Below are positions 4,927 through 25,275 of a stretch of 37,868 nt of DNA, piece after piece (within the stretch, counting starts at the first letter, position 1; each line of letters opens with the position of its first letter). Source of the stretch: Rhodospirillales bacterium RIFCSPLOWO2_02_FULL_58_16 (GTDB lineage Bacteria > Pseudomonadota > Alphaproteobacteria > Rhodospirillales > 2-02-FULL-58-16); NCBI GenBank assembly GCA_001830425.1, contig MIAA01000027.1, positions 64,260 to 102,127 of the forward strand, given 5' to 3'. Both the position numbers and the translations under genes were made by a program. The notes under the pieces are model-generated. The model did not search any database. It was not told where the DNA came from and was given only the letters and a program-made list of their open reading frames with translations.

Positions 4927-6935
4927 ATCACCACCACGATCAACAAGGTTATCAGCGCCGCGAACATCAGGGAAAGATAGCGGCGGATGGTCAGAAACTG
5001 GAGAAAGTTCAGACGGTTGGAAATTCTTTCCAGCAGACTCGCTACCGGCGTGAAGATCAAAGCCCAGGCCGGGTCTGTTATTATTATCTTTATCCGCGCC
5101 GCCCCGACATCTCCGGGGGCGGGCATATCCACCTCCTCACGGGCGCGAAACACGACGCTGCAAAACACCCTGCGGATCGGCTGACTGAACCCGCCGGATG
5201 TGTATTGGCCTGCCGTAGAGTCCGCCGGAGTTCCGCAATCCCAGGCCGGTCCCCGCCTGACCGCCCTGGAGGCAAAGCGGTGAATGAACCAGGCGGTGAA
5301 TGACCCGGCGGTCAGCAGAAAAGCCATGATAGTGAACCCGTCGTAAGAACTTTTCGCCGACGAGAAGGGTATCAGCGCCAACGGCGCGGGACCGCCGCCT
5401 TGCGCGGGCAGTACGGCAAAAACCAGTTCTTGGGTGACCGGCCCCATAGATGTGACGGCCAATGTCGGCAGGACGCCGAAGACAAGGCAAAGAAAGGCGA
5501 GAATACCCATTGCCGCCAATGAATAGCCGTCGGTTTCATGGGCGGTTTCAGCTTGAGGCGTTCTCGGCCGGCCGAGGAAAGCGATGCCGAACGCTTTGAC
5601 GAAGCAGGTCGCCGCCAGCGCCGCAGACAAGGCCAGCAACGCGCCGATAGCCGGCACCAGAAATGTAAGAACGGCCTGGGGCAACTCCGGACTGACCAAG
5701 ATGGATTGAAAGATCAGCCATTCCGACACAAAGCCGTTGAACGGCGGCAATGCCGAAATGGCGATGGACCCCACAAGAAACAAGAACGCCGTTACCGGCA
5801 TCTTGTGGATAAGCCCTCCAAGGCAGTCAAGGTTGCGTTCGCCCGTCGCATGAAGAACGGCGCCCGCCCCCAAAAACAAGAGATTCTTGAACAGAGAATG
5901 ATTAAAAACATGCAGCAAGGCAGCCGTCATCGCCACGGCGGCGCCGGCCTCAAGGCGGTTGGCGTGAAAAGCCGCAGCCAGGCCGAGGCCGATAAAAATG
6001 ATGCCGATGTTCTCAACCGAGGAATAAGCAAGAAGCCGCTTAAGGTCGTCCTGCATAAGGGCGTAAAGAATGCCTATAGCCGCCGTTATTCCTCCGACGA
6101 TCAGGATAGGTATGGACCACCACCAGACGAGTTCACTGCCCGCCAGATCGAAAATAATGCGGATAAAGCCATAGACGGCAACCTTGGTCATGACGCCGCT
6201 CAACAGGGCGGAAACATGACTCGGCGCGGCGGGATGGGCTAAAGGAAGCCAAACATGCAAGGGAAACAACCCGGCCTTTGAACCGGCGCCGAGAAGCGCC
6301 AGGGTAAGAATCGCCGCTCCCGCCCATAGCGGCCTGTCATGCTCCCTGATGGCGTCAAACGCATATCCGCCGTCCGCCCCGGCCAGGATTCCAAAGGCGA
6401 ACAAAAGCATGAAGGCGCCGAAGCCCGCCATGATAAAATAGAGAAATCCGGCTTTTGCCGTCTCAGGATCACGATGGTTGGACATGACAAGCGCCCATGA
6501 CGTCAGGGACATGACCTCCCAGAACACAAGGAAGGTGAAGGCGTCATCGGCGATTACAACCAGATTCATCGCCGCCAAAAACGCCGGAAAGAACGGCAGG
6601 ACGCGCCGGGGCTGCATTTCATGGATGCCGTACCCCATGGCGTAAAGCCCGGCTGCGGCGCTGCCGAGATTGACGACGATGAGAAAAAAAGCCGACAGGG
6701 CGTCAAGACGAAAGTGGGATCCGACCCAGGGCAAGCCTATGGGCAGAACAACCTTCGACGGGACGCCGGACGAGAACAAGGCAAGGACCGCCCCGACAAG
6801 CAACACGACGCTGATGACGGCGGACAGGCCATAGACAAAGCGAATCCACTCCCGATTGGGCCTGACGGCGCAAGCCGCAATTCCAAGGCTGAATAAAAGG
6901 GCCGCACCGCCCATAACCGACAGCAAATAGTTCAT
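4917..6935 (-). CDS. hyfB: Hydrogenase-4 subunit B-like antiporter-family membrane protein (HyfB/EhrA; NuoL-related)
   Basis: A 672-residue multi-pass protein, the same length as E. coli HyfB. It has the ion-channel residues of the NuoL/MrpA family: Glu in FWEVMSLTSWALV, Lys in SKAGLFPLHVWLP, Lys in MTKVAVYGF, and SSVENIGII. A long C-terminal extension (from about residue 540) ends in a final membrane helix, as in HyfB and HycC. It is the first complex subunit transcribed. Its ATG overlaps the stop of the Fic gene by one base (TGATG), so it is probably translated from the same message. There is only one HyfB/HyfD-type antiporter here plus HyfF, fewer than in E. coli hyf. Confidence 0.92.
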   Translation of the reverse strand: MNYLLSVMGGAALLFSLGIAACAVRPNREWIRFVYGLSAVISVVLLVGAVLALFSSGVPSKVVLPIGLPWVGSHFRLDALSAFFLIVVNLGSAAAGLYAMGYGIHEMQPRRVLPFFPAFLAAMNLVVIADDAFTFLVFWEVMSLTSWALVMSNHRDPETAKAGFLYFIMAGFGAFMLLFAFGILAGADGGYAFDAIREHDRPLWAGAAILTLALLGAGSKAGLFPLHVWLPLAHPAAPSHVSALLSGVMTKVAVYGFIRIIFDLAGSELVWWWSIPILIVGGITAAIGILYALMQDDLKRLLAYSSVENIGIIFIGLGLAAAFHANRLEAGAAVAMTAALLHVFNHSLFKNLLFLGAGAVLHATGERNLDCLGGLIHKMPVTAFLFLVGSIAISALPPFNGFVSEWLIFQSILVSPELPQAVLTFLVPAIGALLALSAALAATCFVKAFGIAFLGRPRTPQAETAHETDGYSLAAMGILAFLCLVFGVLPTLAVTSMGPVTQELVFAVLPAQGGGPAPLALIPFSSAKSSYDGFTIMAFLLTAGSFTAWFIHRFASRAVRRGPAWDCGTPADSTAGQYTSGGFSQPIRRVFCSVVFRAREEVDMPAPGDVGAARIKIIITDPAWALIFTPVASLLERISNRLNFLQFLTIRRYLSLMFAALITLLIVVVIWR

Positions 6936-8101
6936 CAGCGCACCAACTCCGTCTCAGTGCGCAATCGGTCGATATAAGCCTGATAGGCGAAGCTGCGATC
7001 ACGTTTTTTGCCGGTCGTCTCGACAAGAATCCCGGCGTTAACGAGCGTCTTGATGGCTCGTATTGCGGTCGGCTTGCTTGCGTCAACCAGCTTCATTGCC
7101 GAGGCGACCGTCACGATGGGGTGGCGGGTAAGCGCCTCGAACAGCCGGGCGGCGTTAACCGAGGCGGTGGCCGAACCCAGCACCCGAGCGCGATCTGCCT
7201 CGACAAGAGCGAAGATATTGCGCGCCGAGATCACCGCCTCGTCAGCGATGGTAGCCACGCCGTCGAGAAAGAAATCGAGCCATCCCTCCCAGTCACCCTC
7301 AGTGCGCACCGCTCCCAAGCGCCGGTAATACTCGGCCTGATGACGCTTGAAGAACAAGCTGAGATACAGAATCGGCTTGGCAAGCAATCCCCAGTGCTCA
7401 AGAAGCAGCGAGATGAGCAGCCGACCTATGCGGCCGTTGCCGTCAAGGTAGGGATGAATGGTCTCGAACTGTACATGGGCCAAACCGGCTCGCACCAGTT
7501 TCGGCAGCCGGTCATCGCCGTGGAGATGCTTCTCGAAATCGCCGAGCAATTCGGGAAGCATGACAGGCGGCGGCGGCACGAATACGGCATTGCCCGGTCG
7601 ACTGCCGCCGATCCAGTTCTGGCTGCGCCGGACCTCGCCCGGCTGTTTGGCGGCGCCGCGTACGCCATGCATCAGGCGGCGATGCGTCTCGTTCAGCAGA
7701 CGCATGGAGAGCGGCAGGCCCTGTCCATCCGCTATCTGACTGCGCGCATAGGTAATGGCGTTGAGATAATTGCATACTTCTTCGACGTCGGCGTTCGGCG
7801 TCGTCTTTTCCTCGGCTTCGAACGCCAGCAGATCGACCAGGGTTGCCTGCGTTCCTTCGATCTGGGAGGAAATAACCGCTTCCTTACGCACAAAGGCGTA
7901 GATGAACCAGTCCGGAGACGGCAGCATCTCACCGGCAAGGTCAAGCCGCGCCAATGCCTGTTCGGCCTGCCGGAGACGCTGAGACAAGCGATCATCAAGA
8001 ATCAACGGCGGCGATGGAGGCAACGGCGCCGGAACGAAGGCCGAAACATCTTCGCCGCCGACAACGACGCGCTCATAGCGCCCTGTATTCCGCCAGACCA
8101 T
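6935..8101 (-). CDS. Fic family protein, class II (N-terminal inhibitory helix), with C-terminal winged helix
   Basis: A 388-residue protein of the Fic family; such enzymes usually transfer AMP from ATP to hydroxyls of target proteins. Order of parts: N-terminal Fic_N region with the inhibitory motif SSQIEG (S/TxxxEG, about residue 77), marking a class II auto-inhibited enzyme; the catalytic motif HPYLDGNGRIGR (about residues 215-226), complete with His, Asp, Asn and both Arg; and a C-terminal winged-helix segment (VASAMKLVDASKPTAIRAIKTL), common in chromosomal Fic proteins. GGAG lies upstream of the ATG at 8101. The stop overlaps hyfB, which is unusual; whether it acts on the complex is unknown. 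Confidence 0.93.
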   Translation of the reverse strand: MVWRNTGRYERVVVGGEDVSAFVPAPLPPSPPLILDDRLSQRLRQAEQALARLDLAGEMLPSPDWFIYAFVRKEAVISSQIEGTQATLVDLLAFEAEEKTTPNADVEEVCNYLNAITYARSQIADGQGLPLSMRLLNETHRRLMHGVRGAAKQPGEVRRSQNWIGGSRPGNAVFVPPPPVMLPELLGDFEKHLHGDDRLPKLVRAGLAHVQFETIHPYLDGNGRIGRLLISLLLEHWGLLAKPILYLSLFFKRHQAEYYRRLGAVRTEGDWEGWLDFFLDGVATIADEAVISARNIFALVEADRARVLGSATASVNAARLFEALTRHPIVTVASAMKLVDASKPTAIRAIKTLVNAGILVETTGKKRDRSFAYQAYIDRLRTETELVR

Positions 8102-10736: not shown

Positions 10737-11369
10737 CTACTGACTTACCCAGACGATTCGGGCGATCCAGTCCACGTCATCGACGAGAACCGAAATATCG
10801 TCATACCTGGGGTTAAGCGACTCAAGGTCTATTTTGCGGGCCGAACGGCGGCGCAACAGTTTGGCCATTACCTCGCCGTTAACGGTTTTTACGACGACGC
10901 GATCACCGCGCCGGATGTTTGAATTGGGCGAAACAACCACAATATCGCCGTCGCGGAACACCGGGTCCATGCTGTCGCCGCTGATTTCCAGGGCATAGGC
11001 GTGCGGGTCGCCGATTCCGGGAAACGGAACTTCATCCCAGGCGCCGCCTATCGGATAACCGGCGTCGTCAAAATAGCCTTGCGCCCCCGCCTGGGCGAAA
11101 CCGATGAGCGGAACGCTGCGATAAACGCCCGCGCCCTCCCCGTCGCTCACATACGAGATGAACTCCTCAAGGCTGGCCTCTGTCGCATTAAGTATCTTGG
11201 AGACGCTTTCCGTACTCGGCCAACGCAGCTTTCCTTCACGGGTTATGCGCTTGCTCTTGTTGAAGGTGGTCGGGTCCAGCCCGGCCTGCCGCGCCAGCCC
11301 GGAGGCCGAAAACCCGTGTTCACGAGCGAGGCGATCAACCGCCCTCCAGATGTCGGCATGTTTCAGCAT
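10737..11369 (-). CDS. HTH transcriptional regulator with S24 (LexA/CI-like) self-cleaving peptidase domain
   Basis: A 210-residue repressor. Residues 1-70 form an N-terminal DNA-binding HTH domain (FSASGLARQAGLDPTTFNKS). Residues about 90-205 are an S24 peptidase domain: the likely Ala-Gly cleavage bond is in GFAQAGAQG, the catalytic Ser is in SGDSMDP, and the Lys is in GEVMAKLL. Proteins of this type are inactivated by RecA-stimulated self-cleavage, linking them to DNA damage. It is divergent from the first prophage gene and convergent with lysK. It may be the prophage repressor, or a chromosomal regulator beside which the phage sits; the sequence does not decide between these. Confidence 0.88.
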   Translation of the reverse strand: MLKHADIWRAVDRLAREHGFSASGLARQAGLDPTTFNKSKRITREGKLRWPSTESVSKILNATEASLEEFISYVSDGEGAGVYRSVPLIGFAQAGAQGYFDDAGYPIGGAWDEVPFPGIGDPHAYALEISGDSMDPVFRDGDIVVVSPNSNIRRGDRVVVKTVNGEVMAKLLRRRSARKIDLESLNPRYDDISVLVDDVDWIARIVWVSQ

Positions 11370-15213: not shown

Positions 15214-15418
15214 ATATCAATACGCATATCAATACGCCTAGTCGGGCAGTATTAGCTCTGATAGACTATCGGTAGATGGCACGACCAAAGCAACCGACGC
15301 CGAGACCAGAGAGATTAAAACTGCCATGAAAGTATCTGAAGGAAGGGGGCCGCAACATAATTCAAGAGAGTGTGCAGATCAGTGCAAACGTAGACATACA
15401 AAGAAGATTTGGCGAAAA

Positions 15419-16660
15419 ATGAAAAAATCGGGCAAAAAAAGTATAAAAATTGAGCAAAGCGGCTTTGCAGGGTCTATCCTTTTAGATGGCCTTTTGCCTA
15501 AGCGAAAAGACATCTGGATAAAGCAAAGCGAACGATACACTGACCGTGCATGCAATGTATCTCAGTTAAATTTCTTTGAAGACCCCACCTCAACATTGAA
15601 AAAATTATCAGAAATAATAAGGCACGAATGCACAACAAAGACGCTCACGTTAAATTTTGAAGAAAAAACATGCTTGGATATGGCTCCCTATATGATTTTG
15701 GCTCTGATGGCTAAAAATTTTAATCCAAAATGGATAATCTCAGCCACATGTACAAAATCCCTACATGAAGTCTTAAAGGCCACCAAGCTTTCCGAAAAAC
15801 TTAACCTTGAAGAATTAAAAGAAGAAAGTTATCCGGAAGATATTTGGCCATTTGAATTGGAATCAATTTGTGGGGAGCACTCAACTCTCCAAACGCCCCA
15901 CGCACTGACAGCACGACGCTTTACAGATAGCGTTAATAATTGGCTATCAAAAGTAGAGTGGACTCTTACTGCCGATGGCAGCGATTATCTATCAAAGATG
16001 ACTGCAGAAGTATTGGATAATGCAATTATCCATAGTCGTCCAGGGACAGAGGATAAAACTACAGGTGGCCTTATTTCCGGCGCAAGTGGCGAAGCTCACA
16101 TCGCGGGGTATATGACAAAACGGAAAGTGGGAAATCAAGACCGATATACATGCCACTTCTCAGTCGTAAGCGTAGGAAGCAGTATCTTCGAAAGCTTGAA
16201 TAAAACGTGTCCGAACCATACACGAGATCAAATTAATAATTTAATAAAAAGTCATAACAAGTCTCTCAGGAGTAATTGGGAGAAAAAAGACCTGTGGACC
16301 CTTTATGCGCTTCAGGATGGAGTAAGCCGTTTTAAGCAAGCGGGAGGGCGAGGATTTATGGAGCTTATTAATTTCTTTGTTAAATTTGGTCACCGGAAAG
16401 AAGAGGAGGTCTCCCTTAATGGAGTGCTGCCCTCTCAATTGGTTATTTTATCAGGTAATACATATATTAAAGTGGATGGCATCGCTCCGAAGAAGGACGC
16501 CAAAGGGTTCTGGTCTCTTGCCTTTAATAAGGAAAATGACCTCAAAAAGCCTCCATCTGGGAAGGCGGTATACAATTTAGGAAATTATAAGTTCCCTGGA
16601 ACTGTCTTAACTGTTCGGTTTGAACTGAATGATGAATATCTCGAAAAATCTCACTCCTAA
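15419..16660 (+). CDS. GHKL-type ATP-binding protein with STAS-like N-terminal region
   Basis: About 413 residues, AT-rich and clearly unlike the flanking phage genes. Residues 197-205 (EVLDNAIIH then S) match the N-box of histidine-kinase-type ATPases, and AGGRGFMELI (about 308-317) matches a glycine-rich ATP-lid box. The segment that should hold the D-x-G box reads VVSVGSSI, with Ser in place of Asp. The N-terminal 160 residues (TLTLNFEEKTCLDMAPYMIL) look like a STAS-type fold. No phosphoacceptor His domain is seen, so it is more like an anti-sigma or regulatory ATPase than a sensor kinase. ATG 15419 is preferred because residues before it look non-coding; ATG 15326 in frame is the alternative. 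First of three co-directional genes. Confidence 0.68.
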   Translation: MKKSGKKSIKIEQSGFAGSILLDGLLPKRKDIWIKQSERYTDRACNVSQLNFFEDPTSTLKKLSEIIRHECTTKTLTLNFEEKTCLDMAPYMILALMAKNFNPKWIISATCTKSLHEVLKATKLSEKLNLEELKEESYPEDIWPFELESICGEHSTLQTPHALTARRFTDSVNNWLSKVEWTLTADGSDYLSKMTAEVLDNAIIHSRPGTEDKTTGGLISGASGEAHIAGYMTKRKVGNQDRYTCHFSVVSVGSSIFESLNKTCPNHTRDQINNLIKSHNKSLRSNWEKKDLWTLYALQDGVSRFKQAGGRGFMELINFFVKFGHRKEEEVSLNGVLPSQLVILSGNTYIKVDGIAPKKDAKGFWSLAFNKENDLKKPPSGKAVYNLGNYKFPGTVLTVRFELNDEYLEKSHS

Positions 16661-16686
16661 ACGAAGTATATGTAGGAAAATTCAAC

Positions 16687-17013
16687 ATGGTTGAGCATGT
16701 CATAGTGCTAGAAATCGAAGACGAGTCCAAAATTCTATCCGGAAAAACGACGGGTGTTCGTGCTCGACTAAAATATGATTTGGATAAATTGGAACTAACA
16801 CCAGATCATATAACTATTAAATTTAAAGTACCCACTGTTACTTCTTCTTTTGTGTTAGGGATGCTTGGCGAGAGCGTAAAAAAACTGGGACTTGAAGGTT
16901 TCAAAAAGAAGTACGGATTTGATGCGCAAAACCGAGTGCTAGAGACAATAGCAGATAATATAGACTTCGCTGCGGCCGATGGTACAGCACTGCCACCTTC
17001 GGCCAAGTCATGA
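16687..17013 (+). CDS. STAS-like domain protein (DUF4325-like)
   Basis: A 108-residue AT-rich gene 26 bases after the GHKL gene. The C-terminal half, VTSSFVLGMLGESVKKLGLE followed by FKKKYGF, matches the STAS-like DUF4325 family, which is often encoded beside GHKL ATPases. STAS proteins bind such ATPases in partner-switching pairs (for example RsbV with RsbW), so a regulatory pair is inferred. AGGA lies about ten bases before the ATG. Its stop overlaps the next gene by four bases. Confidence 0.66.
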   Translation: MVEHVIVLEIEDESKILSGKTTGVRARLKYDLDKLELTPDHITIKFKVPTVTSSFVLGMLGESVKKLGLEGFKKKYGFDAQNRVLETIADNIDFAAADGTALPPSAKS

Positions 17014-17657
17014 GTGGGCATTTAATGGACGAGCCAATTTCATGTCTGGGACAGCAGAGCATTAGCGCTTACATACCACCAGTTGTTGCTTTTATAATTC
17101 TTGTAATACAGCTATTTGTCAATCACAGATACAACCGCCTAGCAAAAGAAGAGCGGGACGCCGCGATGCGTCGGGATTATGCGTTGGATTCATTTAAGCG
17201 AGACGTAGTAGCCCCTGCGGAGAAGGGGCTTTCTTTGTTTGATGAATTTATTAAGGATATTCAAACAGAAATTTTAACAAACGCCGATACAAAAGCGAGT
17301 AAGATTCCCCCCCAATTGCCGATCAATCATAAATCTATGTTTAAGGATTTTGGCCCTGACTTTCAGTCAACTTTTTCCCGCGCAAAAGCAGCATGTAAAG
17401 AAGCTGATTTATTTCTTAGATATCAGAACATAGCCTCAAATCTTCAGAAAACACTTGGACTTCTTGACGAAGAAAAATCATTAGATGATTTGGTTCTGCA
17501 ACAAACGACGGAAATAGCTACGACCTCATCAATGAGCAATGCTCTTTTTGCAATTAAAAGCTTAGCGAATCATGTTGGTGAAGCAAAAGCACGTATTCGT
17601 GCGGAATTGTTAATAACAGGAATGATTTTTGCTAAGAGTCGGCAAAATAGTAAATGA
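17010..17657 (+). CDS. Single-pass membrane protein of the GHKL/STAS cassette
   Basis: A 215-residue AT-rich gene overlapping the STAS-like gene (ATGA). One membrane helix near residues 20-38 (IPPVVAFIILVIQLFV) is followed by a charged linker (NHRYNRLAKEERDAAMRRDY) and a helical, probably cytoplasmic domain of about 170 residues. No known catalytic motif is visible. Placement suggests it is the sensor or effector partner of the ATPase and STAS-like protein; this is inference. ATG 17025 is an alternative start. Confidence 0.62.
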   Translation: MSGHLMDEPISCLGQQSISAYIPPVVAFIILVIQLFVNHRYNRLAKEERDAAMRRDYALDSFKRDVVAPAEKGLSLFDEFIKDIQTEILTNADTKASKIPPQLPINHKSMFKDFGPDFQSTFSRAKAACKEADLFLRYQNIASNLQKTLGLLDEEKSLDDLVLQQTTEIATTSSMSNALFAIKSLANHVGEAKARIRAELLITGMIFAKSRQNSK

Positions 17658-17684
17658 CGCAGAAAACATTAGTTCACTATCGTA

Positions 17685-18848
17685 ATGAGACGCACCTTAA
17701 AGCGCCTGATCTCAGCCGTTGCCTTCGTGATTATTCTTGGCGCGGGCGGCATCTTCGCCGCTGACATTGAACCCGGCATGGCCGCGTATGATGCCGGCGA
17801 TTATGCGACGGCTTTGAAAGAATTCCTCCCCCTTGCCGAGCAGGGCCACGCCAACTCCCAGCATCGCCTGGGCAACATATACCAGAAAGGCCTGGGCGTT
17901 AAACAAGACATCCAACAGGCCATCAAATGGTATAAAAGAGCCGCCGAAAAAGATTACGTTGATTCAATTTATAATCTATCCTTGATATATTCACGCGGCG
18001 AAGGTGTCGCCGTTGACATGGAAGAGTCGGCAAAATGGACAACGAAGGCGGCCGCCCTCGGCGATGCTGAATCCATTTATGGCCTCAGTTGGTTTCATTT
18101 TTACGGCAGGGGATTGCCCAAGGACCTTCATAAGGCGGAGCAATATCTCCGTGAAGCCGTCAAACTTAACTACCCGGACGCCTGTTATCTATTAACTCGC
18201 CTTTACTCTAAAAACCCGGAATTTGTTAACGACGAGGCCATTCAATGGTTGCGCCGGGACGCCGAGAGCGACAACCCGACCGCCCAATTCTGTCTGGAAT
18301 TGTTGATTCTAAAAGATAAAAGATTTGCCGTCGAGCATGAGGAAACCGGCAAATGGATCGAAAAAGCCGCCCTTCACGGACTTGCGCCCGCCCAGGAACG
18401 CCTGGGGATAATGTATTATCATGGGGATGGCGTGGCGAAAGACGTAGGCGAAGCCGTAAAGTGGTTGAACGCCGCTACGGAAGGAGGCCTCGACGATTCC
18501 CCTATGATTTTGGCAGACATCCACTTGAAAGGCCTTAACGGCGCCGTAAATGCGCAAGAGGGATACCGATTGATGAAAATCAGCGCCGAACGCGACAACG
18601 TTATTGCCCAACTGGCATTGTCTATAATGTGCTTTTTCGGCAAGGGAACCGACAAAGACCCGGTGCAGGCTTATAAATGGTTTTTGCTCGCCGACCAAAA
18701 AAGAGAGCAATTAAAAAACACGCCGGGGGAAACAAAGACATACCACGACATCTCTTTGCCCGACTTCACCAAGCGAATGTCTCCCCAACAGATTGCCGAG
18801 GCGGAGCGTTTGGCCGCCGAATGGCGCCCGGAGAGAAAAAAGAAATAA
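17685..18848 (+). CDS. Exported Sel1-repeat (TPR-like) protein
   Basis: A 387-residue protein with a signal peptide (ISAVAFVIILGAGGIFAAD, residues about 9-27) followed by around eight Sel1-like repeats of about 36 residues (for example AQERLGIMYYHGDGVAKDVG and AVKWLNAATEGG). Such solenoids bind other proteins in the periplasm. GC content returns to the host level here, so it is not part of the AT-rich cassette before it. No strong ribosome binding site precedes ATG 17685. The next small gene follows four bases later. No phage function is evident; likely cargo. Confidence 0.85.
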   Translation: MRRTLKRLISAVAFVIILGAGGIFAADIEPGMAAYDAGDYATALKEFLPLAEQGHANSQHRLGNIYQKGLGVKQDIQQAIKWYKRAAEKDYVDSIYNLSLIYSRGEGVAVDMEESAKWTTKAAALGDAESIYGLSWFHFYGRGLPKDLHKAEQYLREAVKLNYPDACYLLTRLYSKNPEFVNDEAIQWLRRDAESDNPTAQFCLELLILKDKRFAVEHEETGKWIEKAALHGLAPAQERLGIMYYHGDGVAKDVGEAVKWLNAATEGGLDDSPMILADIHLKGLNGAVNAQEGYRLMKISAERDNVIAQLALSIMCFFGKGTDKDPVQAYKWFLLADQKREQLKNTPGETKTYHDISLPDFTKRMSPQQIAEAERLAAEWRPERKKK

Positions 18849-18851
18849 TTT

Positions 18852-19100
18852 ATGGTGAACGACATGGAATGGCTGCTGATCATTATGTTCAATCTGCCCC
18901 CGGAGAAAGCCGATATCGGCGATCCGAGATTTCCGACTAAAGCCGAATGTATGGCTGAGGGAGAGAAATTGCTGGAAAGCGGGCTTAGCGACATCCGCCG
19001 AAAAATGAAGGATGGAGAACGCAACCCCGTTATAACTCTTGAACTCGAACGTCCTGTGGTTCGATCCGAAATTATGTGCGTAGAGGTAGCCAAGCGTTAG
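18852..19100 (+). CDS. Small hypothetical protein after the Sel1 gene
   Basis: An 82-residue protein, not recognised. It begins MVNDMEWLLIIMFNLPPEKA and contains CMAEGEKLLESGLSDIRRKM and a final CVEVAKR, with a short hydrophobic N terminus that might be a weak signal. ATG 18852 lies three bases after the Sel1 stop, suggesting coexpression; ATG 18864 is possible. Downstream is a repeat-rich stretch. Confidence 0.55.
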   Translation: MVNDMEWLLIIMFNLPPEKADIGDPRFPTKAECMAEGEKLLESGLSDIRRKMKDGERNPVITLELERPVVRSEIMCVEVAKR

Positions 19101-19197
19101 CGCGTCAGGATTGACTGGAATCGCTTTCGTTACGAATTGCCGCCATTGCGCAACAGGGTCATTCGGTTCTCCCCGTCGGAGCTTCATTGCCCATCCA

Positions 19198-19284
19198 TTA
19201 TCGTCATGCCCGTGCTTGTCACGGGCATCCACGTCTGTCTACCTGTCCATTCCCCGGTAAAAAGACGTGGATGGCCGGATCAAC
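19198..19284. repeat. Dispersed palindromic repeat, copy 1
   Basis: Begins with ATCGTCATGCCCGTG and ends near GACGTGGATGGCCGG; ATCCACGTCT and AAGACGTGGAT inside it are near-inverted copies. A related copy lies at 22111-22202. Such elements (CGTCATGCCC...CACGGGC) are common non-coding repeats in alphaproteobacterial genomes. Confidence 0.75.
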
Positions 19285-19287
19285 TCA

Positions 19288-19461
19288 GTGTGTTTTGACA
19301 CAGAGGCACAGAGGCGCAGAGAAGATCAAGCGAAGTCTTCTTCCTGCTTTTTTCCATCCTCCTCTGTGTCTCTGAGCCTCTGTGGTTGATAAAACAGTAT
19401 CGGCGGCAACTTCCTCTTGACCCCTTTTTCGTAAGGAGGGGAAGGCGCCGGGCATCGTTGC
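19288..19461. repeat. Composite dispersed repeat, copy 1
   Basis: CACAGAGGCACAGAGGCGCA near the left and CTCTGTGTCTCTGAGCCTCT at the right form a long imperfect inverted repeat, followed by CGGCGGCAACTTCC and GTAAGGAGGGGAAGGCGCCG. The same two parts occur in the same order and orientation at 35064-35281, there separated by about 35 extra bases. No coding capacity. Confidence 0.8.
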
Positions 19462-19524
19462 CCATTATCTGGTCGATCTTGTGTCTTTCTACTGATCGCC
19501 GCCACCGTTCCATCATTCTTTCCC

Positions 19525-22993: not shown

Positions 22994-23299
22994 ATGGTCA
23001 GATATATCATTGTTTTACTTAGCGCTTTGCTTCTTTGGCAGAGCGCGTCTCCGTCACCCGCGCAGGCGCAGACGGCGTGCGGCGAACGCAGCGACGCCCT
23101 GTTCCGGCTTGAAAAGGACTTCTCCGAAGCGCCCGTCGCCATGGGTCTGGCTTCCAACGGTTCCGTGATTGAGGTGTTCGCCTCCAAGGCCGGAACCTTC
23201 ACCATCATCATGACCCGGCCCGACGGCGTCAGTTGCCTGATGCTTTCCGGCGAAAACTGGGAGGAACTCCCGGCGCAACTGGCCGGCGCCAAAAGCTGA
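22994..23299 (+). CDS. Small exported hypothetical protein
   Basis: 101 residues with a signal peptide (MVRYIIVLLSALLLWQSASP then SPAQAQ, cleavage likely after AQA). The mature part has two Cys and ends with MTRPDGVSCLMLSGENWEEL, a pattern seen in small periplasmic proteins of alphaproteobacteria (PDGxSC...GxxW). AGGAGG lies six bases before the ATG at 22994, which decides the start over 22973. Function unknown; GC content is host-like. Confidence 0.7.
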   Translation: MVRYIIVLLSALLLWQSASPSPAQAQTACGERSDALFRLEKDFSEAPVAMGLASNGSVIEVFASKAGTFTIIMTRPDGVSCLMLSGENWEELPAQLAGAKS

Positions 23300-23784
23300 T
23301 GAGGGTTTTGTAAAGTGACGCATTTTAAAATCGAACGGAATTGCAAATCAGCCGTTAACGTCCTATTTGTCTGACTGGGAAATAATTTGATGTATACATT
23401 TTTGACATATCTATTTTGCAAATGTATGACCGGGTGAATTTTTTTCCATTGCATTCATAGGGGATTGGGATAGAGTTCCAAGTGTGTGCCAATCGTTTTC
23501 TTTGGCAATGTAATCATTTGTTATATAATCTGCTTGTATGCTCCGACCCTAATCAAGCGGGATATGCGTTCAGATGGCTAAGAGGAGTGGCGTTCCTTGG
23601 TGTGGTTGAGGTGTCGTTGTTGTCGCCAAACTGGCTATGGTGAAGCTGAAGGGTTGATCGGGAAGCTGTTTGGGCTGACCGAAAGTGGAAGGTTTGGCGC
23701 GAGGGTGTGCGCTGGAAGTTTAATTGAGTAATAGGTCGAGCCAAAATTGTAAAGAAGGCGGCAGAGGCTCTTTGGAGGTAGAAA
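23300..23784. other. Gene-free stretch, AT-rich on the left
   Basis: No supported gene. Contains two promoter-like sequences (one weak at 23402-23430, one strong at 23502-23529) and about 200 bases of featureless sequence leading to the next pair of genes. Short reading frames here lack ribosome binding sites. Confidence 0.6.
23502..23529 (+). promoter_or_regulatory. Sigma70-like promoter upstream of the 23785-24573 gene pair
   Basis: TTGGCA (23502-23507) and a perfect TATAAT (23524-23529) with a 16-base spacer. It lies about 255 bases before the first gene of the pair, leaving a long leader. A further TTGACA-N17-TATGAC occurs at 23402-23430. Confidence 0.58.
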
Positions 23785-23976
23785 ATGGCAACACAACTTG
23801 AACTGGCAAGGCATCGCCTCTTTGATGAGGATGCCCTTTATGTTGCCAATATTAAGTTGTTTCCTGGCAGCAAAAGGGACGCCACAGCGGAAGAGGTGGC
23901 TCAAGAAATAAATAAGGCAATTGCTCAGGTTGAGGCTGGTGACTTTGATAACGTTGATGACTTCAACGATTGTTAG
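23785..23976 (+). CDS. Small acidic protein, first of a two-gene cassette
   Basis: 63 residues, acidic at the C terminus (EEVAQEINKAIAQVEAGDFD then NVDDFND). A strong ribosome binding site (GGAGG) precedes ATG 23785. It ends nine bases before the next gene, so the two are one unit. Size, charge and pairing recall antitoxin-like partners, but no family was recognised. Confidence 0.65.
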   Translation: MATQLELARHRLFDEDALYVANIKLFPGSKRDATAEEVAQEINKAIAQVEAGDFDNVDDFNDC

Positions 23977-23985
23977 TCGTTAACT

Positions 23986-24573
23986 ATGAGCTATAGTAGA
24001 CTTTACGATTTTTGCCAAACGTTAACGCCCCATATTCACAGAAATAACATTCGCGACAAAGTCAAGGAACTCGCCGGTGTCCCGTCGTTGCGTGTTGCAA
24101 AAACAGCATTAAATGTTGAATTATGCCGAGGGTTTTATCTTTCTGGGCGTAATAAAAGTCACCCGTTAGTTCAGCAGTTTGGATGCCATCTTATTGTCCT
24201 TCCGCGAGAAGGACTTAATAGATGCGAAGAACGCTTTGTTTTTGTTAAAGAATTAATGCATATTTTTGATAGCCCATTAGAAGCAACAGATACCGGGGAT
24301 GCCTTTGAGAGACTATTGTCTGAGTTTATAGCTCCAAATACAAAAGAGCACTCTCCCCAAATGACTTCGGAAATAAAATGTTTTTGGATGGCATTAGGTG
24401 CTTTATGTCCAGAAGAAAACAGAAAGAAATTTAAAGCTGAAAGAGACAAGAGCCAAATTGATGATTATTCCATAGCTTTAAAACTTCGCATTCCACAAGC
24501 ATACATTTCTCATCTTTTTATTCCAAAATTTGAAGAATTAATAAACCTACTTATCAACCCACAAAATACTTAA
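23986..24573 (+). CDS. ImmA/IrrE-like protein with degenerate zinc motif
   Basis: 195 residues, AT-rich. The segment EERFVFVKELMHIFD sits where ImmA/IrrE-type metallopeptidases carry RF..AHELGH; here the first His of HExxH is Lys (KELMH), so zinc binding and peptidase activity are unlikely. The remaining C-terminal part (DDYSIALKLRIPQAYISHLF) resembles the helical tail of such proteins. Members of the family usually act with a partner regulator; the 63-residue gene just upstream is the candidate. Assignment by motif only. Confidence 0.6.
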   Translation: MSYSRLYDFCQTLTPHIHRNNIRDKVKELAGVPSLRVAKTALNVELCRGFYLSGRNKSHPLVQQFGCHLIVLPREGLNRCEERFVFVKELMHIFDSPLEATDTGDAFERLLSEFIAPNTKEHSPQMTSEIKCFWMALGALCPEENRKKFKAERDKSQIDDYSIALKLRIPQAYISHLFIPKFEELINLLINPQNT

Positions 24574-24874
24574 TATAGATATTTTAGCAATCCGGTCGCC
24601 TTCAAAAATTATTTCGCATGGTCGTTTTTACATAATCGCCGCAACCATTGTTGCTTATCCTCTCTTGAATATCCCGAATTTTTGCGTTTTCGGAGTAGGG
24701 TAGCTCTTGATTTTGGCCTTTTTACCGTCATGCGTACATAGCCGCTCAAGCCATAAAAACCACCTTATATTACAGACCAAACTGGTCATGACGATCTTGA
24801 TCGTTGTTCGCTTAGAGCGGGTTGTGTGCAAAAAGGTCGCCATCTGCCCCTTCCAGCGAGCATAGCCGCCCCCA

Positions 24875-24898
24875 AGCCCCGTCCGGGGCTTTCTTTTT
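24875..24898 (+). terminator. Intrinsic terminator
   Basis: AGCCCC, loop GTCC, GGGGCT, then TTCTTTTT. Ends the segment carrying the two-gene cassette. Confidence 0.72.
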
Positions 24899-24920
24899 GA
24901 CCAATCCGACAAACCTGACG

Positions 24921-24944
24921 CGCCCCCAAAAGGGCGTTTTATTT
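24921..24944 (+). terminator. Second, weaker intrinsic terminator
   Basis: CGCCC, loop CCAAAA, GGGCG, then TTTTATTT, 26 bases before the next ATG. Tandem with the terminator at 24875-24898. Confidence 0.55.
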
Positions 24945-24969
24945 ACCTCTAGGCAAGGGAGAACCGACC

Positions 24970-25275
24970 ATGCACGACACATGGACCATTGACGTAATCT
25001 GGTGGATCACGGCGGTTGAATTGCCGGCCCTGGCCGGCTTGTTCTGGCTGAACTGGCGAAACCGCCAGGACGCCGGCGATGAAAGCGACGCCGTGCGCTA
25101 TAGCTGCGAAAACGGCATGGCCCGCCTGCGGGAAAGCCTTTCCGCCTACAAGCTGGAGGTGGCCAAGTCGTACGCCTCCCTCGGCTATCTGAAAGAAGTG
25201 GAGCAACGCCTGACCAGCCACCTGATCCGCATCGAGGACAAACTGGGTTCCGCCGGCCATGGAGGCGGGTTATGA
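24970..25275 (+). CDS. Small single-pass membrane protein, possible holin-like or lysis accessory protein
   Basis: 101 residues: one membrane helix (IDVIWWITAVELPALAGLFW, about 7-28) followed by a charged coiled-coil-like tail (LRESLSAYKLEVAKSYASLG and EQRLTSHLIRIEDKL). It overlaps the endolysin gene by four bases (ATGA). The pairing suggests a holin or a tail-anchored lysis partner, but the single helix and long cytoplasmic tail are not decisive. GGGAG lies about nine bases before the ATG. Confidence 0.68.
   Translation: MHDTWTIDVIWWITAVELPALAGLFWLNWRNRQDAGDESDAVRYSCENGMARLRESLSAYKLEVAKSYASLGYLKEVEQRLTSHLIRIEDKLGSAGHGGGL

What the first reader, a model, noticed from the sequence alone, without database searches (positions are those of the whole stretch)
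23502..24573. Two-gene cassette with a degenerate HExxH protein
A small acidic protein precedes an ImmA/IrrE-like protein whose motif is KELMH, lacking the first zinc His. The pair has its own TATAAT promoter, AT-rich composition and two terminators downstream. Could be a toxin-antitoxin-like or phage-exclusion unit that uses the fold without proteolysis.
Basis: partly seen in the sequence, partly recalled or inferred. Interest (0 to 1): 0.5.

Follow-up and report, generated by a model that had tools for sequence, protein, structure and literature searches.

The report
Phage two-gene cassette with altered protease
A prophage carries a compact pair of genes, a small acidic protein and a protein shaped like a DNA-damage protease whose metal site is changed in the same way in every relative found, and the pair travels together on phages and transposons, so it is probably an accessory module that works by binding rather than by cutting.

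Summary
Window 23785-23976 (63 aa, pI 4.2) and 23986-24573 (195 aa) form a two-gene unit in a prophage head/lysis region. KELMH is not decay of one copy: in 37 distinct loci K88, E89 and H92 are the only invariant columns, and the third-ligand position is E or D in 36 of 36. Seven loci found without any motif pattern all have KExxH. A confident model (pLDDT 95.8) matches CapP (Z 12.2) and IrrE/PprI (Z 8-9). A related small gene lies directly upstream in 35 of 37 loci, borderline in one, not recognisable in one; searching with the small gene alone found the same genomes. Pair members co-diverge (r 0.84). The pair sits at differing sites in temperate phages, with IS1-family sequences in six loci (one complete transposon), and near type IIG restriction genes in three. 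Two related phages lack it at the window's site. No curated family, named phage or plasmid search matched it. Best reading: a mobile accessory module built on an ImmA/IrrE-fold pseudoprotease that binds its small partner, TA-like or defensive. That function is inferred, not shown.

The parts
23300..24969 (.). Interval that holds the cassette, between two phage genes (108 aa gene ending 23299, 101 aa gene starting 24970) that lie about 90-180 bp apart in two related phages without it
   Evidence: L131 and L139 adjacent; none of 28 related loci hold the pair; AT-rich
23502..23529 (+). Promoter-like site TTGGCA-16-TATAAT, about 255 bp before the small gene
   Evidence: 11 of 12; best of 6 found, 4.0 expected; not conserved in 22 other upstream regions looked at
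23785..23976 (+). Small acidic partner, 63 aa, with conserved KLFPGSxRDxTAEQ-like stretch
   Evidence: no Pfam, NCBIfam or PADLOC family
23986..24573 (+). ImmA/IrrE/CapP-fold protein, 195 aa, KExxH in place of HExxH, with an HTH-like C-terminal part (about residues 142-192)
24247..24261 (+). KELMH, residues 88-92, at the position of the zinc motif HExxH
   Evidence: K88, E89, H92 invariant in 37 of 37; aligned to HExxH by hhalign
24370..24372 (+). E129, aligned with the third zinc ligand of M78 proteins
   Evidence: E in 29 and D in 7 of 36 rows with a residue
24874..24891 (+). Terminator-like hairpin with T tail
24920..24937 (+). Second terminator-like hairpin with T tail

Best explanation
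It is a mobile two-gene accessory (moron-type) module. Shown by computation: the larger protein has the two-part core of the ImmA/IrrE/CapP group, a zincin peptidase fold followed by an HTH-like part, and no GAF domain. Its zinc site always has Lys for the first His, while the general-base Glu, the second His and the third acidic position are kept. It is encoded with one particular small, usually acidic protein as a unit that moves between phages and IS1-type elements. Inferred: with one zinc ligand replaced by Lys it does not work as a protease; the Lys amine takes the place of the metal charge and ties Glu89, His92 and the acid at 129 into a stable cleft. The small protein binds this cleft as a substrate-like partner through its conserved KLFPG stretch, and the complex is the resting state. 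The free larger protein, released when the small partner is lost or displaced during infection or induction, then acts on a host or phage target, as in toxin-antitoxin or exclusion modules. The last step is the weakest: I put TA-like or anti-phage at about 0.5, and regulator or anti-defence for the resident element at about 0.3.
For: Fold: model pLDDT 95.8, pTM 0.91; Foldseek top rows 3dte/3dti IrrE probability 1.00 and 7t5t CapP 0.91; VIA Z 12.2 CapP, 8.7/8.4 IrrE, 8.0 PprI, above the next zincins at about 5. Sequence: hhalign against 17 canonical M78 rows E 4.5e-4 over 125 columns with KExxH on HExxH and E129 on the third ligand, reversed control E 0.6; one distant member, L040, hits phrog_87 metallo-protease at 1.2e-5. 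Invariance of K/E/H in 37 of 37, including 7 loci found by profile or protein HMM search without a motif pattern: L004, L007-L010, L044, L046. Pairing: small gene clear in 35 of 37; small-gene profile alone in 240 genomes rang in 7, of which 5 are the genomes with the pair and 2 are short pieces of long ORFs; distance correlation 0.84, 0 of 2000 permutations reach it. Purifying selection: dN/dS 0.08-0.30 in the 5 of 8 comparisons that were not saturated. Mobility: IS1 transposon L026 with 23-bp repeats and 8-bp duplication GAAATTTG; phage contexts; empty site in L131 and L139. Defence neighbourhood: type IIG genes near L030, L037, L040 against 78 N6_Mtase matches in 58 whole genomes.
Against: HHalign probability was only 33% although the E-value is good. 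Foldseek E-values against PDB are weak (best 0.029). Type IIG genes near 3 of 37 loci is a small number, and phage loci show no defence neighbour by my reading. The two genes could co-diverge simply because they are linked. In L044 the upstream ORF is not recognisably the small protein (65 of 500 shuffles score as well), in L040 only at E 0.015. Four small proteins of 34 are not under pI 5.5 (5.7-9.2).
Confidence: 0.5

Rival explanations
1. RosmerTA-like reading with the roles reversed: the ImmA-fold protein is the antitoxin and the small acidic protein is the toxin or effector that it holds by binding, without cleaving.
For: In RosmerTA and the NetFlax D25 node the ImmA-domain protein is the antitoxin, paired with diverse toxins, and gene order varies in that group (passages of PMC10440598).
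Against: D25 proteins often carry an N-terminal HTH; this protein has none before the peptidase part. A small, mostly acidic protein looks more like an inhibitor than a toxin (inference).
Confidence: 0.17
2. A regulator for the resident mobile element, a pseudoprotease counterpart of ImmA/CapP: it binds a repressor or anti-sigma-like partner and tunes induction or transposition, the small protein being its regulated ligand.
For: ImmA, PprI and CapP all act on HTH repressors (passages). Some copies lie near repressor genes, such as L018 next to an S24/HTH repressor. An HTH-like part is present at the C-terminus.
Against: Positions vary: head genes (window, L011, L022, L024), after tail genes (L005, L019), in IS1 elements (L026, L008) and chromosomal spots without phage genes by my reading (L025, L027). 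An element-specific regulator should stay with its element's control region.
Confidence: 0.2
3. The site is still a working metallopeptidase with another residue as third ligand, and the small protein is its substrate or zymogen-type inhibitor.
For: E89, H92 and the acid at 129 are kept in every member with a residue there; D95 is kept in 33 of 37 and C80 in 29 of 37, so nearby groups exist.
Against: No candidate replacement ligand is invariant; Lys is a poor zinc ligand (general chemistry, recalled) and is itself invariant.
Confidence: 0.09
4. Cargo without a settled role: decayed or neutral genes carried along by phage and IS1 traffic.
For: Some copies are broken: in-frame stops in L010, early stop in L093, cut copy in L002.
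Against: Purifying selection in the unsaturated comparisons, invariant site and a constant partner.
Confidence: 0.04

Closest known systems
CapP of the CapH-CapP pair (Thauera sp. K11, PDB 7t5t)
   Same: Closest fold, VIA Z 12.2, rmsd 3.1, 147 residues aligned; two-gene module; defence-linked (passage).
   Different: CapP is a protease that cuts the transcription factor CapH, activated by ssDNA (passage of PMC10904395). Here K replaces the first His and the small partner has no HTH family hit.
IrrE/PprI with DdrO (Deinococcus; PDB 3dte, 3dti, 8slm)
   Same: Peptidase-like domain plus HTH-like part in the same order.
   [quoted passage not shown] neither is here.
ImmA/ImmR and COG2856-Xre modules (Pfam Peptidase_M78)
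   Same: Fold and motif register; mobile-element setting.
   Different: Of 8 members scanned with Pfam only 1 matched M78, weakly (0.12); no HExxH; no Xre-type partner.
RosmerTA (RmrA/RmrT)
   Same: Two-gene phage-associated modules with an ImmA-type domain (passages).
   Different: RmrA is a protease-domain antitoxin; the pair here has another partner and a changed site. PADLOC has no match.
PD-lambda-2 (E. coli anti-phage system)
   Same: Peptidase domain of ImmA/IrrE kind in a defence operon (passages of PMC9519451; that the two passages concern one system is my reading).
   Different: Three components with an Xre-peptidase fusion and a HigB-type protein; no such genes here.
IS1-family transposons with passenger genes
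   Same: L026 is such an element carrying the pair plus a short PRGPKGE-type gene.
   Different: The window copy has no such terminal repeat and no transposase next to it.

Membership tests
ImmA/IrrE (Peptidase_M78) group | Zincin peptidase-like fold of IrrE/ImmA/CapP | tested here: met
   (CapP Z 12.2, rmsd 3.1, 147 aligned; IrrE Z 8.7, rmsd 4.1, 141 aligned)
ImmA/IrrE (Peptidase_M78) group | HExxH zinc motif | tested here: not met
   KExxH in 37 of 37
ImmA/IrrE (Peptidase_M78) group | Acidic third zinc ligand in the following helix | tested here: met
   position 129 E in 29, D in 7 of 36; register from hhalign
ImmA/IrrE (Peptidase_M78) group | Match to the Pfam M78 model at its cut-off | tested here: not met
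   none over cut-off; best E 0.12 in 1 of 8 members scanned
ImmA/IrrE (Peptidase_M78) group | Proteolysis of a cognate HTH repressor | not testable with these tools
   needs purified proteins
CapH-CapP | HTH transcription factor partner (CapH) | tested here: not met
   small protein: no HTH family in Pfam among 20 of 20 members scanned; one sigma-70 region 3 row at E 0.09, below cut-off
PprI/IrrE | C-terminal GAF-like domain | tested here: not met
   protein ends at residue 195, after the HTH-like part
Type II toxin-antitoxin / RosmerTA | Conserved adjacent two-gene unit moving as one | tested here: met
Type II toxin-antitoxin / RosmerTA | One gene toxic alone, the other neutralises it | not testable with these tools
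   no expression test possible
Type II toxin-antitoxin / RosmerTA | Match to a known defence or TA model | tested here: not met
   PADLOC, NCBIfam, Pfam: none for the window's two proteins
IS1-family passenger unit (window copy) | IS1-type terminal repeats around the pair | tested here: not met
   0 matches to the L026 repeat with up to 3 mismatches in the window
IS1-family passenger unit (L026) | Terminal inverted repeats, target duplication, IS1 transposase | tested here: met
   23-bp perfect repeats, GAAATTTG on both sides, PF03400 1e-6

The most novel reading that the evidence does not exclude
The KExxH site is not a dead site but a rebuilt one: a metal-free zincin family in which an invariant lysine stands where zinc's first ligand stood and, with the kept Glu, His and acid, forms a new functional centre (a charge-mimic peptide clamp or a lysine-based reaction centre) dedicated to one small partner. 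This would be a recurrent, phage- and transposon-borne module of its own kind, a TA or defence switch run by regulated binding instead of repressor cleavage.
Probability: 0.2. Interest if true: 0.85.

Novelty: new variant of a known kind. Interest (0 to 1): 0.6.

Why it matters
ImmA/IrrE/CapP proteins are proteases behind prophage and ICE induction, radiation response and CBASS control. A relative carried by many phages that keeps the whole site but swaps one zinc ligand for lysine in every copy, and almost never goes without the same small partner, would show that this fold has a non-proteolytic branch. It offers a very small two-gene system in which binding-only signalling by a former protease can be tested directly. 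The gene pair is also a new marker for phage morons and IS1 cargo.

Tried and rejected
Curated families: no Pfam, NCBIfam, PADLOC or PDB sequence match for either window protein (profile searches gave only rows that I take for chance; Pfam on all 20 small proteins). PHROGs: the two window proteins gave only chance rows; of 37 large proteins 2 matched phrog_87 at 0.01 or better; I identified one of them, L040, by scanning 10 of the 37 and did not look for the other. Named phages and plasmids: tblastn with P0002, L013, L012 and L023 in phages and with P0002 and L013 in plasmids found nothing.

The first structure job, with 8 sequences, was poor (pLDDT 57) and not used. RNA idea: the G-rich 255-base leader folds no better than shuffles (z 0.21), has no Rfam match (two rows far below threshold lie elsewhere) and is not conserved upstream of other copies: rejected. 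The 3' interval folds somewhat better than shuffles (z -1.89); it holds the terminators.

IS1 for the window copy: no matching terminal repeat; rejected for this copy. L041 has IS1-type repeats at both ends but no transposase and no target duplication in the flanks printed. I first read an L109 IS1 cargo as HicBA-like; Pfam did not support it: dropped. The 12 of 29 M78 segments without HExxH did not align with the family, so it is not of that branch.

Absence in fold lists: rows below the M78 group are other zincins at Z about 5 and HTH or sigma-4 domains at Z 3.7-4.8; those among them that are toxin domains were not followed up.

Papers: PMC10440598, PMC2701414, PMC9519451, PMC10904395 and PMC11266112 were seen only as passages; the others only in search listings. 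'KExxH' and 'KELMH' as whole words are in none of the 5.39 million held papers, which says nothing of papers not held; the listings of searches showed no description of this pair. No wider claim is made.

Rows dropped: duplicates of the same element were left out of the 37 (L001, L003, L006, L043 = window; L036 = L007; L028 and L029 = L009; L035 = L005; L017 = L016; L021 = L015; L045 = L008; later refetches L076-L080 and L088-L100 except L093). For one search small proteins were trimmed to a likely start by a rule of mine. Locus contexts are my reading of ORFs; only those with a family call are cited as such.

Full report
WHAT IS THERE. The window lies at G000:C27:64260-102127 of a 2.73 Mb genome. 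Two ORFs, 63 aa at 23785-23976 and 195 aa at 23986-24573, follow each other on the + strand with a 9 bp gap. The motif is KELMH at residues 88-92. The neighbours are phage genes: major head protein (phrog_3437, 2.4e-66), endolysin-type protein (phrog_938, 3.3e-21), and two phage genes of unknown function on either side, phrog_25396 and phrog_29007.

AN INSERTED UNIT. In the window the two flanking phage genes are 1670 bp apart (23299 to 24970). A search for relatives of the downstream one gave 28 viral loci. In two of them, L131 and L139, the upstream neighbour is also found and the matches lie about 176 and 93 bp apart; none of the 28 loci holds either gene of the pair. L024, a phage related to the window's prophage (portal 58%, head protein 63%), does hold a distant version of the pair, but between portal and scaffold genes. 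The same kind of phage has thus taken the unit at two different sites.

THE FAMILY. Single-protein searches found one viral and one genome relative. Successive alignments found more in viral contigs, in named bacterial genomes and in unnamed whole genomes. After removing duplicates, 37 distinct loci were aligned, window included (A13). K88, E89 and H92 are the only invariant columns; R83 is R in 34 of 37, D95 is D in 33 of 37, and position 129 is E in 29 and D in 7 of 36. Some searches used a pattern that contains KE and H, which would bias this count, but L004, L007, L008, L009, L010, L044 and L046 came from profile or protein HMM searches without a pattern and all 7 carry KExxH. The family is rare: 6 of 385 genomes of the class, 5 of 289 and 2 of 398 of the phylum, each count including the window's own genome, and 1 of 200 of one gammaproteobacterial order, the centre itself. 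Named records include Rhizobium, Rhodospirillaceae, Asticcacaulis, Ponticaulis, Tahibacter, Pseudoxanthomonas and Methylococcales (Tahibacter lineage).

THE PARTNER. An HMM from 20 small proteins was run over all loci then held. In the 34 distinct loci scored the small gene lies just upstream on the same strand, at E of 3e-11 or better except L040 (0.015). L046 and L093 were added (1.3e-7 and 9.6e-24, for a search of three sequences). L044 has an ORF of fitting size that is not recognisable (65 of 500 shuffles score as well). That is 35 of 37 clear, one borderline, one not. Of the 17 loci not used in training, 15 are clear. The reverse test: the small profile alone over 240 genomes rang in 7 at 0.01; 5 are exactly genomes with the pair, 2 are pieces of 27 and 39 residues inside ORFs of 1060 and 341 aa. 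Gaps between the genes have a median of 22 bp; 30 of 34 small proteins have pI under 5.5. Distances in the two proteins correlate at 0.84 over 33 loci, with 0 of 2000 permutations as high; linkage alone could give this. dN/dS is 0.08-0.30 in 5 of 8 comparisons; in the other 3 dS was saturated.

FOLD. With 8 sequences the model was poor; with 37 it is confident, pLDDT 95.8 and pTM 0.91, five models within 94.5-95.8. Foldseek against PDB puts IrrE first with probability 1.00 (E 0.029) and CapP third. VIA-align gives CapP Z 12.2 (rmsd 3.1, 147 aligned), IrrE 8.7 and 8.4, PprI 8.0, then two entries of a Mycobacterium regulator at 7.6 and 7.4, and other zincins at about 5. Residues 142-192 also match HTH domains of sigma factors, ParB and DeoR at Z 3.7-4.8. 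PprI is described as a zinc peptidase-like domain, an HTH domain and a GAF-like domain (passage of PMC10904395); the protein here has the first two in that order and ends. By sequence, hhalign of the family (34 rows) against 17 canonical M78 segments from related genomes gives E 4.5e-4 over 125 columns, probability 33%, with KExxH on HExxH and E129 on the third ligand; reversed sequences give 0.6. One distant member, L040, matches phrog_87, metallo-protease, at 1.2e-5. The window's genome itself has no M78 match.

WHERE IT TRAVELS. Phage settings with a family call or a match to known phage genes: window; L011 before a prohead protease (PF04586); L018 beside an S24/HTH repressor; L032 near a minor tail protein (PF10145); L022, whose downstream gene matches a gene that follows the protease in L011; L024. 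Others, by my reading of ORFs only, lie near terminase, portal, tail, exonuclease or integrase genes. IS1 settings: L026 is a complete element, 5334-7485, with 23-bp perfect terminal repeats, the 8-bp duplication GAAATTTG, a short PRGPKGE-type gene, the pair, and a transposase (PF03400, 1e-6). L008 has the left repeat, the same four genes and a 9-base direct repeat CGAAGAATC near both ends with a worn right repeat. L036 has the same gene order cut by the contig end; L002 a left repeat and the transposase start; L023 a transposase part and a repeat; L041 two repeats without transposase. The window has no such repeat. Three loci lie near type IIG restriction genes: L040 about 200 bp away, L037 about 1.3 kb (its specificity gene about 350 bp), L030 about 2.5 kb. 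As a yardstick, N6_Mtase matches number 78 in 58 whole genomes of the class, many of them in short ORFs that need not be restriction genes, so a chance meeting within a few kb is unlikely; I did not compute a formal test.

HOW IT MAY WORK. Shown by computation: fold, invariant change of one ligand position, near-constant partner, mobility. Inferred: the protein is not a protease, because Lys is a poor zinc ligand (general chemistry, recalled) and no other residue that could replace it is invariant. That the remaining site residues stay invariant says the cleft still has a job. Zincins hold substrate peptides along an edge strand beside the motif (recalled); the small protein has a conserved KLFPG stretch with an invariant Lys at position 24 in the alignments of 8 and 20 members (Arg in L032), so I propose that it lies in this cleft as a bound partner. 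The consequence, TA-like or anti-phage against regulatory, is not decided by the data. Variable sites, transposon carriage and restriction-gene neighbours favour the first; the repressor-linked roles of CapP, PprI and ImmA (passages) favour the second.

COMPARISON. I found nothing described that is exactly this. It is closest in fold to CapP and IrrE, and closest in kind to ImmA-containing TA and defence modules (RosmerTA, PD-lambda-2; passages). It fails the HExxH feature of M78, the HTH-partner feature of CapH-CapP and the model match of every defence or family library tried on the window proteins, so I do not file it as a member of those; I call it a new variant of the ImmA/IrrE-fold two-gene module.

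Noticed in passing
L026 5334-7485; L103, L105, L106: IS1-family elements repeatedly carry a short PRGPKGEKRPAD-type gene, with or without other passenger genes before the transposase; the KExxH pair is one of several cargoes. L102, L103 and L112 have a coiled-coil-like ORF in the cargo place.
   Followed up: partly
L041 5072-6902: IS1-type repeats enclose the PRGPKGE-type gene and the pair but no transposase: possibly a non-autonomous element.
   Followed up: partly
window 11529-34840: Prophage-like stretch of about 23 kb with portal, scaffold, head, lysis, tail and terminase-type genes but no integrase or replication gene that I recognised.
   Followed up: no
window 15326-19516: About 4-5 kb of extra ORFs between scaffold and head protein genes; in the related L024 these two genes are under 1 kb apart. 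Looks like a second insertion.
   Followed up: no
window 10737-11369 and L024 761-1678 (- strand): A LexA/S24-like repressor with similar N-terminus lies beside the phage genes in both, so it may be the phage's own repressor.
   Followed up: no
L002 4108-4863 and 6347-6715: Two similar copies of a portal C-terminal part flank the cassette, and the large ORF runs into the start of an IS1 transposase: a rearranged or chimeric contig.
   Followed up: no
window 23530-23784: Strongly G-skewed leader (GC skew about 0.3) before the small gene, with no stable fold and no conservation elsewhere.
   Followed up: yes
L010, L093: Broken copies of the large gene (in-frame stops; early stop) beside intact-looking small genes.
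   Followed up: no
BFVD entry A0A345BNR9: An unnamed 200 aa viral protein is the best structural match among predicted viral structures (E 5.8e-4, TM 0.59, 10% identity); not examined.
   Followed up: no
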